A stretch of 64,000 nt of DNA from Tubiluchus corallicola (Eukaryota > Priapulida > Priapulimorpha > Priapulimorphida > Tubiluchidae): positions 372,001-436,000 of the forward strand of contig JAQGDQ010000127.1 of assembly GCA_030141605.1 (NCBI GenBank), written 5' to 3'. The translations under genes and the position numbers were made by a program. Shown one piece after another: positions 15,001 through 50,158 of the stretch (position 1 is the stretch's first letter; the number at the start of each line of letters is the position of its first letter). Below the pieces are notes generated by a model. The model searched no databases, was not told where the DNA came from, and saw only the letters and a program-made list of their open reading frames with translations.

Positions 15001-18000
15001 TCATTTAGAAAAGTTCAACGGGTAGACCTATGCAAACGTGCAGGTCGTACCTATGTTATAGTACTTAGTAATGGCTTTATTTTCTCAATGCATTGTAGAA
15101 ATATAATTTTTGCAACTCTTTGATCCAGGAAGTCTCTGCTCTTGTTCTGGTCATAGTACTATAAGCATACTACATGTCCACTTGTCTTTTTTTATATGGT
15201 TGATAAATAATTTCTCGTATTTTAATTTTAAGTGGGATGAATTGCATGAGCGTAAAGTCTGCCGTGCCCAACAGAAGCCTCTTAATGATACGTCTGGTTT
15301 GCCAACTTTACTGAAAAGAAATGTTATAGGTAAGTTAAGCCTGGGTATTAGAGATGAGCAGTGAATGTTCAAATCGAATTAAAACTTTCGAATTGTAACT
15401 TCAAACTATGAATTTTAATAATTCCACACTATGTGGTTCGGGTTGTTATGACCCCAAAGCCTTGCTATCGCGAACTTTATTCAAATTCTGAACCCTGTTC
15501 CCAAACATTCAGCCCGTCCAAACTCTGTACCCGAACTTGTCATCCTGACCCGACCCGATCCCAAACTTTAAAAGTTTATAATATTTCAAAGCTTACAATG
15601 GGTTTTTGAGGCATATGAAGAAAAAAGTGCTAGTTATCATATTATCTGTCGCTTAATTTTGTGATAACATATTGTTTATTGAGATTTTCATGCAAGCAGG
15701 TAATCTTCTTAGTAAAGTAGACCCTATGCATAATTTTTCCGTCTAGCAATCACTTTAACTTCATAGCAAATTTGTGGCTGGCAGGCTACCAGGCAGTGCA
15801 TGTGTATATGTGTGTGAAACCTGTTTGCGATGTAGGCACTTTTTCGTCCAGGATTATAAGAAGCTATAATAGTAAAGTTTTGAGCCTAAGTTATTAATAC
15901 AGCATTGAACAAACACATGCAAATAATTTATATACTGTAATCTCAATTTCAAGATTAGTTCTTGAAACTACTAATTAGTGGATAAACCTACAATTATTGA
16001 ATTTATGAATCCATACCAAAGAATATGCTCCACAGAAAGTGGAGAAAGTCCTACTGCGCAGCAGTTCGCGCAGTTAGTGTCGCCCTAGCGGCACAGCAGT
16101 ACCGACTGTTGTTGTCAGGTACACCATAGAGCAAGCTGTTTGCGCACCGGTGTTGATGAGACCACCAAAGCCAGGCCGGTCGACAGTCGCTCATAATTTG
16201 CTCAGCAGTTGCAAAAACAATAAAAATATCTTTTTAAATTTCCCGAGGATGCAGCCAGGTAATTATATCAAAATGCTAATTATAACACAGTTTTGTAACT
16301 TTTGTTACAAGCAAAATATTTGTACACTAAGCAAAGACTGCCTACATCTGTCTTTGGCGATTTATAGTAGCTGTTATATTTTTGAATATGATTTAAAGCA
16401 AGCATAAGGCACTAAGAATAATTAGTAGTTAAAATAAAAACTATTATACTCACATCTCATCAAAATTAATATTCTTATTTACAAAAGAGGTTAAGAAAGT
16501 TGATCATAAAGAAAGTTTGCTAACACCTGACTCTTGTAGTATTCTATTTCAGGAGAAATATTTTTTCTAAAAAACATTCCAATTTAATATGTTTTTATCA
16601 GGAAATATAGCTTGAAGAAATATTAAGCCTGACTTTCGTGTGTTTTACCTTTCATGGAAAAAAATCGATTTTTTCAGAAAAGCAAAATAATTTTTCCAGA
16701 ACAAAACTTAATCTAAGCATCTGCATGTTTTGTTAATTCTAAGTTAAACGATGTTTAAAAAACACATAATCATACATTGGCCTTTGTTATGAGTTGGAGT
16801 TGGTTATAAAATCACGTTGTACAAACGGAGAAGCATTTATGACATTACTCCTCTTTTTTATTGTCAGTGAACAAAGAATAACAAAACAAAACATCAGAGC
16901 TGTCATCCTGAGCAGCCGACATTACTTCCACCTCTATAACAGTCAACTAACTAGGTCAAAATCAACTTACAGAATTCAGGTGAGAAGCCAACCTGGCGCA
17001 TAAATTAGAATCTGCAGGCAGGTCATAACATCTCATATGTCATGTGTAGATGTCACTTACATTTAGCCTAATTTTTTAAGATTCAGTTAGGCTTACGTCA
17101 AAATCAATGTTCATTAAATACAGTCTGTTTACGTGTAAAAAAATGTACTTGTATAAGTGTACTAATAAAACACCTGTGGCTAAATCCACAGACAAAGTAT
17201 TGATAAATAATTTATTTATTGATGGGCTTAAATTGATTTTATAGGCCTAGGTGCTAAGGGCAATCAGTTTATGTTGTTAAATATATAGGCCCAGCTTCAT
17301 AGAATCTCTGTATGTAATAGTGCATACATCATACATGTATATGAGTGTGTGTGCATGGGTGTATCAAGACGTTACGACACCTTAGGCCGTGTTTCCACTG
17401 CGTCCGCACAGACACGTACAGACACAGACTTTTCTGTCCGCAAAAGTTGTTTCCATTAGGACCGCACTCATTCTGTAAAATACATCATAAATAAGCCAAA
17501 AGTTTAGCGCGAAATTCTAAAGATGAGACTTTCTAGAAGAAACAAGATTTTTAATTTGCTATGGTGGTTAAAGAAAAAGGTAAGTAGGCGATACAGGAAG
17601 TGACAACATCGTTTTTGGGTTCCCTATTTCAATATTTGAAAATCATGGACGGCTAGGCGAATATCATCATGTGTTGCAACAAGTTGTAATAATGGATGAA
17701 GAAAAGTGCCTTGGTCATTTGAGATTGCAACCTTCAACCCTCCGAATTTTACTTCATTTGTGTTTTGAACATCTTAAGAAACAGAACACAAATTTTCGGA
17801 ATTGTATTTCACCAGAACAGCATCTTGTTGTTACACTAAGCAGAGCCAACAACTAATAAACTGTATCTTAGCATGAAATTATTATTCACATTTTCAGAAA
17901 TATTATTATACGTGTATTACATATAGTTAATGTCTAATTTTAATTATTATCGAGGCTTTCAATTTACATTAACACTTACAATTCACATTTACATTCCACA

Positions 18001-21000
18001 TTAATGATTTAGTTAGCATACATGTGCGTTATGAAACTTGAAACAAAAGAAATGTTGCAATCTTGTGCTTGTGTTATGCAACAATATAGGTTTCAGCACT
18101 GGATTATGCATTCTTGCCTAAATGTTCAAGCTAACAATGGGCATCATTCCACCACCATATTCCGGTGCATTTTCTTTTACATAACACAAAAGAAGTTGTT
18201 GCACTTCAATACAAAACAACAAGTTCTTAATTGGGTCAAATTGCCACATCATTGGCACTAAACTCTTTAAAAAAAGCTCGTGATTATTTTTCACTTGGTG
18301 GTGAAGACAAACGGAAGCCTTAAAATTATCTACTGCAGCGTTTCTCCTTATTATTATTAACATATTGCAGTTGATTATGATTGTGCCTTGCATAACTCGA
18401 CGTAGTCCAGTCAATTTGTTAATGATAAACAAATTATAACAGATGAAGCCAACGTCAACAATTGGCTTAGAGCGAGAAGTTTTGTGGGTTTAGCAGGTTT
18501 GGGAGCAAAACGACTTGGCAGGTTTGGCATGTTGGCAAAGTGCATCTCTAGGCTGTGGGAAATCGGAACTGAATAGCATGATGTCAAGAGTTTAGCTAGT
18601 ATAGTAGTGTTGAGGTTGGAGGGGTATAGGATGAAAGGCTACGTGGCATAAAACAGCTTGAAGGTTCCACAATTTCGCGCGGCTCTGCATGATGTGCTTG
18701 CCTAATATCTACAGTTTTGCCTACCATGGCAAAATTTTCAGACATTTAAAAATCAGATTGTGCGAATATTTGGCATGTGGTTTTCTTTTAAATGCAAGCA
18801 ATTAAAAGCAGTCTTCCGGATGATCGTCCATCCATTATTAATCGAGCAGGGCATTTGTACAGCTGTGTTGTAGCCAAACATTTGCCTTGAGCACTCAGTC
18901 CAAAAACACTATTCTGTTCATATCCTGAGCATTAAAAATTACAGTTAGTTACAATAAGGTAACATATTTGCTAAAATATTTTGTTAAACATATGAACCAA
19001 GAAACATAGTACATATTTGTATAAAACTGATTATTAAAAAACATGTGAATGAATAGGCTGTGCTTTATTCTTAATATGATTAGGGCTCACATATAAAAGT
19101 TAGGGATCTATTGGAAGGCAACAAATGGTTACTTCCTGATTCTCAGGCTTAAACCTTATGGTATTTTTCACAGCTTTATATTTCTTGGTAAAATGACTAT
19201 CTAGAGAGAAATCATTATACTTGAAATGTACTTGATAAATTTGTACATGATTTAGAAGCAGAAAGTTTTAGTACAATTATTGAACGTTCCAAATTAGAAA
19301 AGCACAATCATTTTTGCACAACAGCTATCAAAGCTTTTTGTTGTATTGTGTTAATTGCTAGCTTTTAGCATGTCAGATCCTTTCTCAGCTATCATAACAA
19401 CAGCAGCCTGAATGTTAGCAGAAACTATTTCTGGCATAACAGATGCATCAATAACTCTCAAGCTTTGGATTCCTCTAACTTTGAGTTCAGGGTCAACAAC
19501 AGCATTTGTATCATTAGTCGCACCCATTCTACATGTACCAGTAGCATGGTATATTGATGCTGTCATTGTACGTACACAACATGCCCAGTATTCATCCTCT
19601 TTCAATTTTTCGCATCCTGGAACTAACTGAGTACGCATTCGTGTGCCAATAGACTTGAATGCTTTTGTTTCTGTTAGCTTCAGTGCCAATTTGATGCCTT
19701 CAACTAGCATTTTTACATCACCTTCCTTTTCAAAATACTTTGGATCAATAACAGGTTCATCAAATGGATCACTTGAATGAAGCCTAATTTCTCCTGTACT
19801 CTTTGGATGAAGTAACATGGTGGTTATTTTAAACATCTGTTTGTTTAATTGATCAGCAAAATTGAAATCATGGATAAATTTATCACTGAACCCAGATTTT
19901 CGTTTTGTTTCAGTGTCACCCAAAAAACCAATTACAGGTCCTCCAATCTCAAACTCAATGTCAGGAATTGCTAAGTTTGGATTCGAATATTTGGTTTTGT
20001 ACATCATAATACCACATGTTTGAATTGTTGCTAGTGGTCCATTTCCAAAAAGTTTATATTGTAACACAGATTTCCAGCTTTCTATTTGATGCTTAACATA
20101 CATTAAAGGTTTATCAATGTAGAATTCTGGAAACCAAGTGCCCATATGATCCTGCATGTTCTTGCCGACAGGAAGATCAGCAACAACCGGAATGCCCATT
20201 TTCTCCAAATGGTCTTTTGGGCCAACACCAGACAACAACAAAAGCTGTGGAGATGCAATTGAACCTGCAGATAAAATTATTTCCTTTCTTGCTTTTACAA
20301 TTTTTTTTTCAGCATAATGTATGAAGACTACTCCTTCTGCCTTTGCACCATTAAAGATAATTTTTTGTGCTCTGGCATATATAGCAACATGTAGGTTAGA
20401 TCTAATTGAAGCAGGCTTTAAATAAGCTTTTGATGTACTCCACCTTGTACCATGCTTTAAATTACCTTGAGGCTTCATGATTTTGAATTGATTCTCGCCA
20501 TTGCTGTCACCAACTTCATATCCAAGTTCTTTACCACCCTCGAGGAAAATATCAGATAATTCAGTAGTTGCTATGTCAGAAATTGGCCATGGACCTTCTT
20601 TGCCGTGGTAACGAGATTTTCGGTAATCAAGATTGAAATTATTTTCAGCTTTCTTAAAGTATTGCAGAATGCTCTCATAGTCCCACCCTGTTGCACCCAT
20701 TGCAGCCCAGCCATTAAAGTCTTCCTTGTTCCCTCTCATGTACACTAGCCCGTTAATACTGCTTGATCCACCGAGCATTTTTCCTCTTGGCCAATAACTT
20801 TGTTTATTTTCGCATGCATAGCAACTGTATTTTTGAGAGACTGTCTTGTATTTCCAGTCAGAAATGCTAACATTTCTCAAATTGCCGCGAGATGCAGGTA
20901 CATCTATGTCATTGATATCTGTGTCCTTTCCACCTGCTTCTATTATTAAAACTTTCACGCTTAAATTTTCACTCAACCGATTGGCTAGAACACAGCCAGA

Positions 21001-24000
21001 TGCTCCAGCACCAATAATAATGTAATCGTAAACTTCGTCTAAATTTTCTGTAGTTATATAATCATCATTCTTGCTTTTGATGTACAAAATGACTATTGCA
21101 AGTAAAACAATCATTAGTTTTGCCAACATGTTTATTGTATACTTTATACCCGTTTTACAAAGGGTTTTTGCCTTTAGCTGTGCGATCTAAAACTGAAAAT
21201 GCTGTTACCAAATAGTTTGACGAGTATTACTTGCTATTACTGTGAACTTGCTAGTACTGCTATAACTTGCTATTATCGTCACAAATAGACTAACGCACTT
21301 TGTTCAAACAGTACAAACTGCAAAGTACGAGATATGTTTACACGTGTGATACTATTTTCTAGCAATAAAACAAAACTTCTGTGAGCGAACATTCCGGATT
21401 AAAATACAAAGCATTGCATTTAAAAATGCGTACTACGCCGTCCTTTCTATTTTTTAAATCTCATTGTAGTCATCAACTTTGTTTAACACAGTTAGCGCAT
21501 CCAGATTACAGCAATTCTTTCAAGTGCGCAGCCATCTTTGATTTATTGGCTGATGTCAGTTCAACTTAGTTTATTTATAATCCCTAGTCTGCGTATCAAG
21601 GAAACAAAAACAACAGTTTTCAAAGGCAAGATTATGTGGTAAAAATTTGTATATTTGAAAGCAGGTCAAATAGGGATTACATATGCAAGATACAAGTGAA
21701 ACGAATATAGATAAATTAAGAAAAGTTAGGATGTATGTCACAAAGCTGTTGCAGCTAATGTAACGAAAGATGAGCAAACTATAAATTAAACATTGACTGG
21801 TGGAAAAGATGAAATTTATGTGTATAAAGTTACACTAAAGCACGTGTCTTTGATCTTGCAAACTGGCACTTTTTGTTGGTGTCAGTTTGCTCGCCAATTT
21901 AGTGAAGAGAATCAATTTTTCTTCTTGATATATCTTCATATGTTGCTAGAGGCCTGCCTAAATATTTATGTTCTCTCCACACATCATCTCCATTCCTTTT
22001 TACGTTGCACTCTTTTGTTATATCTTTGTTTAATAGGAGACACATTTCTTTTCATTTTGTTTGTAGCTTGATCTTGATGTCTTCTATTTCATCTCTGCCT
22101 CTTCCCATGGATACACTTGATTCTGGTTGGTTCTGGTTGATTCTGATTAATCAAGTGTATCCATGGGAAGAGGCAGAGATGAAATAGAAGACATCAAGAT
22201 CAAGCTACAAACAAAATGAAAAGAAATGTGTCTCCTATTAAACAAAGATATAACAAAAGAGTGCAACGTAAAAAGGAATGGAGATGATGTGTGGAGAGAA
22301 CATAAATATTTAGACAGGCCTCTAGCAACATATGAAGATATATCAAGAAGAAAAATCTTAGCACAAGTGGCATATTTCCAAATTAATGGAAAGTTTTGAG
22401 AGTAAGAGAGTCAGTCTGGAATTGGAAACAAAATTAACAATATTTAATGCACTTCTGTAAACTGTGTTTCTTTGCAACTCAATTTTATGGACAATCAAAA
22501 CACATACAAAATCAGAATTAGATCCATTTCAAAGAAGAAACTGAAGTAATATATACGAATAAATGTCCAAAGAAGCTGCCAAATCAGGATCTGTATCATG
22601 AATTCAAAGCAGAGAAATAGAATTTAGAAATACAAATTGAATATGATTGTTTTTCTTGAACTAGATTGATCAGCAGTGAGTGAGTAAGTGGGTCAATGAG
22701 CACAACGACTATTCTACCATATTAATGACAGATTTGAATTTAGTATAAAATTAATATATGTGAGTATGTAATCAACTGTCAAAAGTCATTGATAAACACA
22801 AAAATTGTAAGATATCAGACAATCAAACTTAAACTTAAAACAATCAAAATATTTTAAGGAACTAAATTGAAAAGAACTTGGAGAATAGTTAGAAAGGTAT
22901 CACATTGTAATAGTCTTTTGTGGTCAAAGTGGTCTTTTGTGGTCTGGAGTGAAATAAATTGATTGTTGATTATTGATTGAAGACCAATTTGCTTGTCTCG
23001 TGTTCCAAATCTTTTTGCTTTTATGTTAGACTAACTTTAAACTTCTAATATTTTTTTACAGATTGCCCAAATTGCAAACATAGTTTTGTCATTTCTAAAG
23101 GAGGATGTATGCACTTTAAGTGTAACAGTTGCAACTATAGCTTCTGCATTGGATGCAAAAGGAAGTTTACTGATGGCAAAGTATTAACTTCTAATAAACT
23201 TTTAATTGTTTATAGCGATATAAGAGGTGTCATATTTTTTGCCATATTATTCCAAAAAAATCTGTACCTCACATATACTTCTTAAGTTTCTTATTAAAAG
23301 TATTTTATTTTTGTTTTCCATATTTAGCTACATTTTGTTCCATGAAATTGTCCATAATTATTAAAATTTATAAAAAAATAATTAAAGCTGGATACTTCCT
23401 GTTTCTGATTTGCTATAGGATTACAACGGTCATCATCTCCAAGCAATAAATGTGTTAATTTGCATAAATTATGTATATTATGCAGTGCTGAATTTTTACT
23501 CTCCATGAACTTTTCCAGAAATGTGCGGTCTCTGTGACATGTAAGAATAAAGGTTTACATGCTCATCACCCTCGTAATTGTCTATTCTTTCTAAGAGATT
23601 ATGAAGTTGCAGGACTAGAGTCGCTTCTTGAGGTATGTCTGTAAAGGTCTACATTAAAACAAACTTAAGTTTTTGATAATGTTTTTATTTTAACCTATTC
23701 TTATGGAGAAGGAGCACAGGGTATAGCGAATTCTAACCACAGAATTAGCAAAATTGTATTTTCCAGGCTTCTGTAAGAATTTTTCTTTTTTTAATCCTAA
23801 CTAAATTTGTTTACAAGATACATAGTAGGGACGTAGTAAAATGTGTAATTTTATTATGTAAAATGGTTTCTGTAAGCTACTTAGTATATTACTGATAATA
23901 TTGTACATGTTACATAAAATTATATTTTGGCCAATCTTTTTATAGCAGCACCATGTAAATTACAGAGCAATAATACTGGAGCAGCTGCCTGAAATAGGTG

Positions 24001-48272: not shown

Positions 48273-50158
48273 GTTACAAGAGTCTTAGATGCAGGCTATT
48301 TTGACAAACATTTTGGACACAGGTTATTTTGACACCAAAGACTTGTGGACACAAGGGCATTTAAGACACATAAGACATTTGGACACAAGGTAATTTGGTA
48401 CATGGAACATTTGGATGCATAGGACATTTGGACACAGGACTTTTGGCTATATAGGCCATTTGTTCTTTTTTGATCTCTTGCTGATGAGTAATGGGTCAAA
48501 ATTTGTTTGGCTTTGCGGCAGTCTGCAGTATGAGTTGTTATGAGTCCAGATAGCACAAGGTAATTTGGACACATAGTGCATTTGGACAAACGTAATTTGG
48601 ACATGTAGGACATTTGGACACAAGGCATTTGGACATGTAGGACACTTGGACACATAAGACATTTGGACACATAGGATATTTGGACAAATAGGCAATTTGT
48701 TCTTATCAGGATCTTGTTAATGAGTGATGGGTCATAATTTTTTTGGTTTCATCAACAGTCTACACCATGAGTTATTATGGTAGGATATTTAAAAATTATA
48801 AAAAAAGCTAATTTGTGTTGATTGACCCAAAATATATACGTTCCATTTTTCGTATTTTTGTGTTTGTACGTTTTCTTGTGCATGGGCACCGCAGGCAGAC
48901 GCACGTGCATCCACAGAATTCCTTCAATTAAAATTTTTTATGGCTAAATAAAATTTTTAACACTAAATTGAGAAACACCCTAACCCTTGTTTGTTTGCAT
49001 TTTAAACTAGTGAACTTGCCTGAGGAAATAGCTTCTAGCAACCACATTATGGAAAAAAATGCAATAAAGTGCATGTGTGGCCGAGACATTCTGCTGTTTA
49101 GCTGTGTCTGGTGGGAAAAATTAGCAGGTGGGCTGTAAACTTGACAGTCTCAAATCAGTTATATGTTTGACTATCCACGTTTTGCTGGGTAGATAATCTT
49201 GACACTAAATAAATTAAGCTTAAGTGGTCATCCGAAGCAGTGGATTACGAACTTGCTTTTAAGATATATGATTACTACAATAGAATACAATGATTATTAC
49301 ATAGATAAATGTAGATAAAATATATTATTAAAGCAGAATTTTTTGCATTTGAGGAAGTATATGTAATTGAATTTAGATCTCATTTGAGGCCTCCAAAATG
49401 TGCTTAAATGCAGGAAAACGCATTGGAGGAACTTACAGTGCTTCCCCAGACCCCCTAGCTGCCTTTGCATCACACTATTTTAACTCTGGCGGCGCCCATG
49501 TTCCTGTGTCATTTTTTGTCATGCCATTTTCCTGTTCTATTTTTACCTACGTTCGTCATTGGCTCTTTGTACTTCATGGAAATTCATGGAAAAAGATTGT
49601 GATGTCAATGAGTCGATGGGCTAATGCCCACCACCTTCATTTTCCAAAAAATTTAAATTATTTTACTATATATGTATAAGCAAATTGTACGTACCAAGTA
49701 ACATTTATTCTGCTGGTTATATTATATTATCAGCTAGAAATTTGTTATCATATTATGCATTTCTGTAATCGTAAACCCCATGAAAGCCTAGCATAAGCAA
49801 CTTATACGTCCAGCTCACCTTGTGTTCAAATGTCCTGTGTGTCCAAATGTCCTATGCACCCAAATGTCCTTGTGTCCAAATGCCCTATGTGTCCAAATGT
49901 CCTGTATGTCCAAATGACTTATGTGTCCACATCACCTTGTGTCTAAATGCCCTATGTGTCCAAATGTCCTGTATGTATAAATGACCTACGTATTTAAATC
50001 ACCTTGTGTCCAAATTACTTATGTGTGGAAATAGCCTTGTGTTCATATATTTTGCATCAAATTTACCTATACGTGTGTTGAAATAGCCTTGTGCCTAAAG
50101 TGCCTCATGTCTGAATGACCTTTGTTCCAAATGTCTTGTGGCAAAATGTCTGCACACC
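48273..50158. mobile_element. Foldback-type element with inverted tandem-repeat arms
   Basis: The left arm (about 48290-48690) is an array of a 17-20 base motif of the form TTTGGACACATAGGACA. The right arm (about 49810-50150) is the same motif inverted (TGTCCAAATGTCCTATG). Both flanks carry GAAAGTAATG (48263-48272 and 50159-50168), a candidate 10 bp target-site duplication. A larger direct repeat of about 130 bases (48440-48560 and 48675-48785, ATGGGTCA...TTTGG...CAGTCT) lies in the left arm. No transposase was found in the 1.1 kb centre. The structure recalls foldback elements such as FB of Drosophila in architecture only. Confidence 0.8.

What the first reader, a model, noticed from the sequence alone, without database searches (positions are those of the whole stretch)
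21916..22355. 440 bp near-perfect palindrome in the same intron
Two 207-base arms differ at a single position and end abruptly, with a 26-base loop. Such identity means a very recent inverted duplication, an active foldback element, a hairpin-RNA source, or a sequencing or assembly artefact. It lies upstream of the GMC gene, inside RNF31 intron 9, so RNF31 pre-mRNA would carry the hairpin.
Basis: partly seen in the sequence, partly recalled or inferred. Interest (0 to 1): 0.7.

Follow-up and report, generated by a model that had tools for sequence, protein, structure and literature searches.

The report
Recent inverted copy beside LINE fossil
A dead jumping-gene fragment in an animal gene's intron appears to have been copied backwards next to itself fairly recently, most likely by a DNA-copying slip, leaving a long near-perfect hairpin; the mechanism is of a known kind and no function is shown.

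Summary
The palindrome is real in the given sequence: arms 21915-22122 and 22149-22356 (208 nt, one mismatch, 26-nt loop). It is not a foldback or TIR transposon. A search of its genome (343.5 Mb) shows that the right arm plus right flank, about 22154-22621, is one decayed copy of a dispersed non-LTR retrotransposon (reverse transcriptase PF00078 in family copies). In 20 of 20 fetched copies, 18 of them independent, homology runs from the right arm into the right flank, in none into the left flank. So the left arm is the newcomer: an inverted copy of the remnant's first ~201 bp. The remnant differs from the family consensus at 88 of 439 sites (codon positions 27/26/35). Of 203 arm sites, 36 changes are shared by both arms, 1 is right-arm only, 0 left-arm only. 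The copy was therefore probably made late, after the element had broken. Junction words (TTGATT/AATCAA; AGAATCAA/TTGATTCT) fit replication template switching or foldback priming; that step is inferred. Twin priming, foldback element and assembly error are less likely; the last is not excluded without raw reads. Any RNAi or ADAR role is speculation.

The parts
22154..22621 (+). decayed LINE remnant (reverse-transcriptase region just downstream of the YADD motif of family copies), truncated at both ends; the source copy
   Evidence: nhmmer with a profile of 10 family copies, E=8e-96, model 21-483 of 793; 20 of 20 fetched loci colinear; RT domain in ORFs of two family copies
22149..22356 (+). right arm (original orientation, part of the LINE remnant)
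21915..22122 (-). left arm: inverted copy of the right arm; newly inserted part about 21916-22116 (inferred)
22123..22148 (.). 26-nt loop, within a 2.9-copy array of a 10-bp unit (22117-22145)
21908..21915 (+). AGAATCAA, reverse complement of TTGATTCT at 22117-22124, at the outer end of the left arm
22117..22124 (+). TTGATTCT; its TTGATT is the 6-nt microhomology with AATCAA at 22149-22154
21957..21957 (.). the only arm mismatch (partner 22314); the left arm carries the family-consensus base
22217..22219 (+). in-frame TGA in the RT frame, present in both arms: the element was already broken when copied

Best explanation
The palindrome is a secondary mutation inside an old, truncated non-LTR retrotransposon remnant in the RNF31-like intron. 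Shown: the right arm and right flank are one element fragment, and the left arm is an inverted copy of its first ~200 bp. Inferred: it was made late, when during replication or break repair a nascent strand switched template through short complementary words (TTGATT/AATCAA at the loop; AGAATCAA/TTGATTCT at the left junction), copied about 201 nt of the remnant in the opposite sense, and switched back. The 208-bp stem is the by-product. Speculative consequence: a transcript of the intron contains a long hairpin that could be edited by ADAR or cut by Dicer; nothing here shows that it is.
For: Forty other places on 39 contigs match one arm only, at up to 85% identity (40 of 64 candidates scored). 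In 20 of 20 fetched loci (L007-L026; L010-L012 are identical) homology continues from the right arm into the right flank (in L008 after a gap), in 0 of 20 into the left flank. Variable 5' ends, a common 3' end in 13 of 18 independent copies, GATGATG-type tails in several, and RT-domain ORFs in two copies identify a LINE. Of 203 arm sites, 36 changes from consensus are shared, 1 right only, 0 left only; the arms share a stop codon. The remnant's changes are spread over codon positions, 27/26/35 of 146/146/147 sites (no test run), as in neutral decay. If the left arm is the insert, junction homology is 3 and 6 nt; if the right arm, 0 and 1 nt. Taking out 21916-22116 leaves a perfect 16-bp palindrome at the join: 4.5e-5 of 200,000 random single joins, 0.0012 allowing 28 placements. 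PMC8794818 (abstract and passages) describes template switching creating perfect hairpins in one event. PMC7999016 (passages) reports 5-9 bp inverted repeats driving palindromic duplications in yeast.
Against: The ancestral locus was not seen: no relative is held, the right flank has no second full-length match (40 of 68 candidates scored), and the left-flank search did not complete. The junction argument is post hoc and uses an inferred empty site. The consensus was made from 11 other copies, so some of the 36 shared changes may be subfamily differences rather than decay, and homogenisation of old arms would also give shared changes. The yeast seeds in PMC7999016 had 3-12 bp spacers in Mre11- or Sae2-deficient cells; here the spacer is 26 nt. 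About 201 copied nt is long for the local template-switch study PMC7954356, which looks within a mutation cluster plus or minus 100 nt (passages).
Confidence: 0.75

Rival explanations
1. LINE 5' inversion: the inverted segment arose at retrotransposition by twin priming, or by the cDNA end folding back and priming on itself, at the 5' truncation point; the arms have since been kept alike by conversion.
For: The element's 5' limit (about 22140-22168 by the three comparisons) lies near the inner end of the right arm, so the inverted piece is the element's own 5' end. 5' inversions are common in human L1 (18.4% germline, 21.9% somatic; PMC12016303, passages).
Against: The arms share 36 of 37 changes from consensus and a stop codon, so formation at insertion needs near-complete homogenisation since, or a source already carrying most of those changes. 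In human L1 the cDNA overlap has median 12 bp (quartiles 4, 17) against about 200 here. No 3' tail was found: homology ends at 22621, so a target-site duplication could not be looked for at a true 3' end.
Confidence: 0.13
2. Assembly or library artefact: a fold-back chimera joined into the contig.
For: Raw reads could not be examined. The assembly holds identical stretches of nearly 5 kb on three contigs (L010, L011, L012), so redundancy exists.
Against: Two separate misjoins back to unique flanks are needed. The one arm difference puts the family-consensus base in the left arm and another base in the right arm, as expected of a mutation after a real duplication, although an error in the right arm would look the same and one of 19 readable loci (L021) has the right arm's base.
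Confidence: 0.1
3. A foldback or palindromic MITE inserted as a unit.
For: Long inverted arms with a short loop. A different MITE-like inverted repeat (97-bp arms, 98-bp spacer, 6 mismatches) exists in the genome (L015:140-431).
Against: No second palindromic copy among the scored places (40 others; 24 of 64 candidates unscored). Homology is not confined to the arms but runs past 22356 in 20 of 20 fetched loci. I see no target-site duplication beside the arms (by eye).
Confidence: 0.02

Closest known systems
Replication template-switch mutations that create hairpins (four-point model; PMC8794818 abstract and passages, PMC7954356 passages)
   Same: a reverse-complement copy of adjacent sequence made in one step, short homology at the switch points, perfect stem, local
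   Different: about 201 nt copied, long for the local events of PMC7954356; ancestral state inferred from element copies, not from an orthologous locus
Foldback inversions / inverted duplications primed by short inverted repeats in yeast (PMC7999016 passages; PMC7467729 search listing only)
   Same: short inverted words at the turn-round point, palindromic duplication
   Different: here small and interstitial, spacer 26 nt rather than 3-12, no repair defect known
LINE 5' inversion by twin priming (PMC12016303, PMC4245944, passages)
   Same: 5' end of a LINE copy present in inverted orientation
   Different: inverted piece fully duplicates the forward piece (about 200 bp against median overlap 12 bp), and shares the remnant's decay
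Hairpin-RNA (hpRNA) loci of Drosophila (PMC10317233, search listing only)
   Same: long inverted repeat able to give long dsRNA
   Different: no expression or small-RNA evidence; arms derive from a LINE fragment in an intron

Membership tests
Template-switch inverted duplication | one arm is an original sequence, the other its reverse-complement insertion | tested here: met
   20 of 20 fetched family loci (18 independent) colinear with right arm plus right flank, none with left flank
Template-switch inverted duplication | short homology at the switch points | tested here: met
   3 and 6 nt for a left-arm insertion; relies on an inferred empty site and was looked for after the fact
Template-switch inverted duplication | ancestral allele without the inverted copy | not tested
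   no related genome held; no second full-length match for the right flank; left-flank search unanswered
Non-LTR retrotransposon remnant (source of the arm) | RT domain, variable 5' truncation, shared 3' end in the family | tested here: met
   PF00078 in two of three ORFs tried; 5' limits vary, 13 of 18 copies share a 3' limit. The label RTE-like is recalled; no clade test was run
LINE twin-priming 5' inversion | inverted and forward cDNAs adjoin with little overlap | tested here: not met
   about 200 bp overlap against median 12 bp in human L1
LINE twin-priming 5' inversion | both parts as old as the insertion | tested here: inconclusive
   36 of 37 changes from consensus shared by the arms argues against, but homogenisation or a diverged source is not excluded
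Foldback / TIR element | multiple copies with both arms, flanked by target-site duplications | tested here: not met
   0 of 40 other places palindromic, 24 of 64 candidates unscored; no duplication seen by eye
hpRNA / endo-siRNA locus | 21-23 nt small RNAs from the stem | not testable with these tools
   no RNA data; only stem stability computed
Known structured RNA family | match to an Rfam model | tested here: not met
   0 matches in the window at gathering score

The most novel reading that the evidence does not exclude
A newborn hairpin-RNA locus: a template switch turned a dead LINE fragment inside a transcribed intron into a long dsRNA source whose siRNAs or edited transcripts act against other members of the LINE family or on RNF31 splicing. 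Fifteen of the arm's 188 21-mers match exactly in at least one of 18 other copies, and each copy has 6-33 of 188 within two mismatches.
Probability: 0.06. Interest if true: 0.5.

Novelty: new member of a known kind. Interest (0 to 1): 0.24.

Why it matters
It is a readable case of how a long near-perfect hairpin, the raw material of small-RNA genes, can appear in one step. Because the copied sequence belongs to a repeat family, the direction and probable lateness of the event can be read without an outgroup genome. Beyond that it looks like an ordinary private mutation in an intron.

Tried and rejected
Coding function of the arm: the 59-aa stop-free stretch had no Pfam match and only a chance-level solved-structure match (E 0.58). 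Its codon score is matched or exceeded by 12% of 126 stop-free runs from stretches I took as noncoding. The family search later explained it as broken RT. No relatives in the prokaryotic and viral collections. Rfam: none. Extension of LINE homology through the loop: gain of 1.5 bits in a profile match on the joined flanks; a pairwise alignment with shuffles gave nothing (1586 of 2000 shuffles as good, and the alignment itself was poor), so left open. Tail and target-site duplication of the window copy: none found; homology ends at 22621. Base rate of palindromes in the genome: only 90 kb of fetched loci was scanned (18 loci, L011 and L012 dropped as duplicates); one other inverted repeat with arms over 50 bp was found. 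RT search of family ORFs: the third ORF tried (L016) had no RT match, only DUF6451 below its cut-off.

Rows dropped: L011 and L012 were left out of counts of independent loci as identical to L010. The family profile used 10 loci and the consensus 11 of 20 fetched. Twenty of 40 other places were fetched.

Full report
Observation. The inverted repeat is present: arms 21915-22122 and 22149-22356, 208 nt, one mismatch (21957 C, 22314 A), 26-nt loop. It stands far outside chance: in 20 Markov resamplings of the window the longest arm was 21 nt, and the next longest in the window itself is 46 nt. The stretch 21800-22420 folds as RNA at -415.2 kcal/mol against -140.4 on average for 20 shuffles. It lies in an intron of an RBR ubiquitin-ligase gene with the RBR C-terminal domain downstream, consistent with RNF31. 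The intron limits 15330-23061 rest on a heuristic exon list from which I chose an exon scoring 4 over three scoring 5, by recalled resemblance to HOIP; two of those three would overlap the left arm and look spurious.

What the arm is. The window's genome (G000, 343.5 Mb, 2344 contigs) holds at least 40 other places on 39 contigs similar to one arm, at up to 85% identity. Each is listed twice because the query is its own complement; 64 candidates were seen and 40 scored. None of the listed places is palindromic. I fetched 20 of the 40; L010-L012 are identical, so 18 are independent. In 20 of 20 the homology continues from the right arm into the right flank, in most to between 22607 and 22635 (L020, L024 and L025 stop earlier in the joined match, L008 after a gap), and in none into the left flank. 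Among themselves the copies have 5' limits from about -1079 to +85 relative to 22149; 13 of 18 have 3' limits between about +690 and +775, and five (L008, L019, L020, L024, L025) end earlier (only the best pairings were printed). Several end in GATGATG-type tails. ORFs from two copies match the reverse-transcriptase domain PF00078 at 1.7e-11 and 4.5e-12; a third, more 3' ORF does not. This is a non-LTR retrotransposon family. The RTE-like label is from recall of tail and sequence style. The window copy spans profile positions 21-483 of 793 (22154-22621, E 8e-96), so it is truncated at both ends.

Which arm came first, and when. The right arm is part of the element and the left arm is its inverted copy. 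The window copy differs from the family consensus at 88 of 439 aligned sites, with 27, 26 and 35 changes at codon positions 1, 2 and 3 (no significance test), close to the even spread of a dead copy; it has stops and frame breaks. The 11 copies behind the consensus differ from it by 5.1 to 18.7%, which is partly because they made it. In a three-way comparison over 203 arm sites, 36 changes from consensus are shared by both arms, 1 is in the right arm only (22314) and 0 in the left only. At 22314 the left arm has the base of 18 of the 19 loci that could be read; L021 has the right arm's base and L008 was not shown. The in-frame TGA at 22217-22219 is in both arms. The simplest reading is that nearly all decay came before the inverted copy was made. 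Homogenisation of older arms, or a source subfamily already carrying many of the changes, is a less simple alternative.

How it formed. If the left arm is the insert, it begins after 21915 and ends at 22116. The first junction then has 3 nt of homology and the second 6 nt (TTGATT, which is also the first part of the 10-bp array 22117-22145). The opposite model gives 0 and 1 nt. At the inferred empty site AGAATCAA would abut TTGATTCT, a 16-bp palindrome; the chance for a random join is 4.5e-5, or 0.0012 allowing 28 placements. This was noticed after the fact. Short inverted words of 5-9 bp are reported to drive palindromic duplications in yeast, though with 3-12 bp spacers and in Mre11- or Sae2-deficient cells (PMC7999016, passages), and template switching is described as a one-step source of perfect hairpins (PMC8794818, abstract and passages). 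I therefore favour replication template switching or foldback priming. This step is inferred. For scale, a survey of perfect inverted repeats with spacers up to 8 bp gives 140 bp as the longest arm in the human genome (PMC13155455, passages).

Rivals. LINE 5' inversion is attractive because the element's 5' limit (about 22140-22168) lies near the loop. But human L1 inversions overlap by a median of 12 bp (PMC12016303, passages), not about 200, and the shared changes argue against formation at insertion. A foldback element is contradicted. An artefact needs two misjoins and cannot be settled without reads; no second full-length match for the right flank was found, and the left-flank query did not complete.

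Function. No evidence of one. Of 188 21-mers in the arm, 15 occur exactly in at least one of 18 other copies, so siRNAs from the stem would mostly mismatch the family. No Rfam family matches the window. Whether the organism has the proteins that dice or edit such stems was asked but not answered.

Verdict. A genuine-looking, probably late inverted duplication of a LINE fossil: a new example of a known mutation type.

Noticed in passing
window 19351-21186 (-): A 611-aa open frame with both GMC oxidoreductase domains lies uninterrupted on the opposite strand, by my intron limits inside the same intron; its first ATG is about 790 bp from the palindrome.
   Followed up: partly
window 22944-22980: A 37-bp stretch matches 39 other listed genome places, nearly all at 94-95% identity, and looks like the 3' end of another LINE with a (TTGA)n tail.
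   Followed up: partly
window 21857-21892: A small hairpin of about 13 bp (GCAAACTGGCAC...GTGTCAGTTTGC) stands about 20 nt left of the palindrome.
   Followed up: no
L015:140-431: 97-bp inverted arms with 6 mismatches and a 98-bp spacer, with further inverted repeats in and beside it, like a MITE or foldback element.
   Followed up: no
L010, L011, L012: About 4.8 kb identical on three different contigs (C2263, C2262, C2196), so the assembly holds redundant or very recently duplicated stretches.
   Followed up: no
window 48308-50042: Two arrays of a degenerate 17-bp repeat in opposite orientation about 1.1 kb apart.
   Followed up: no
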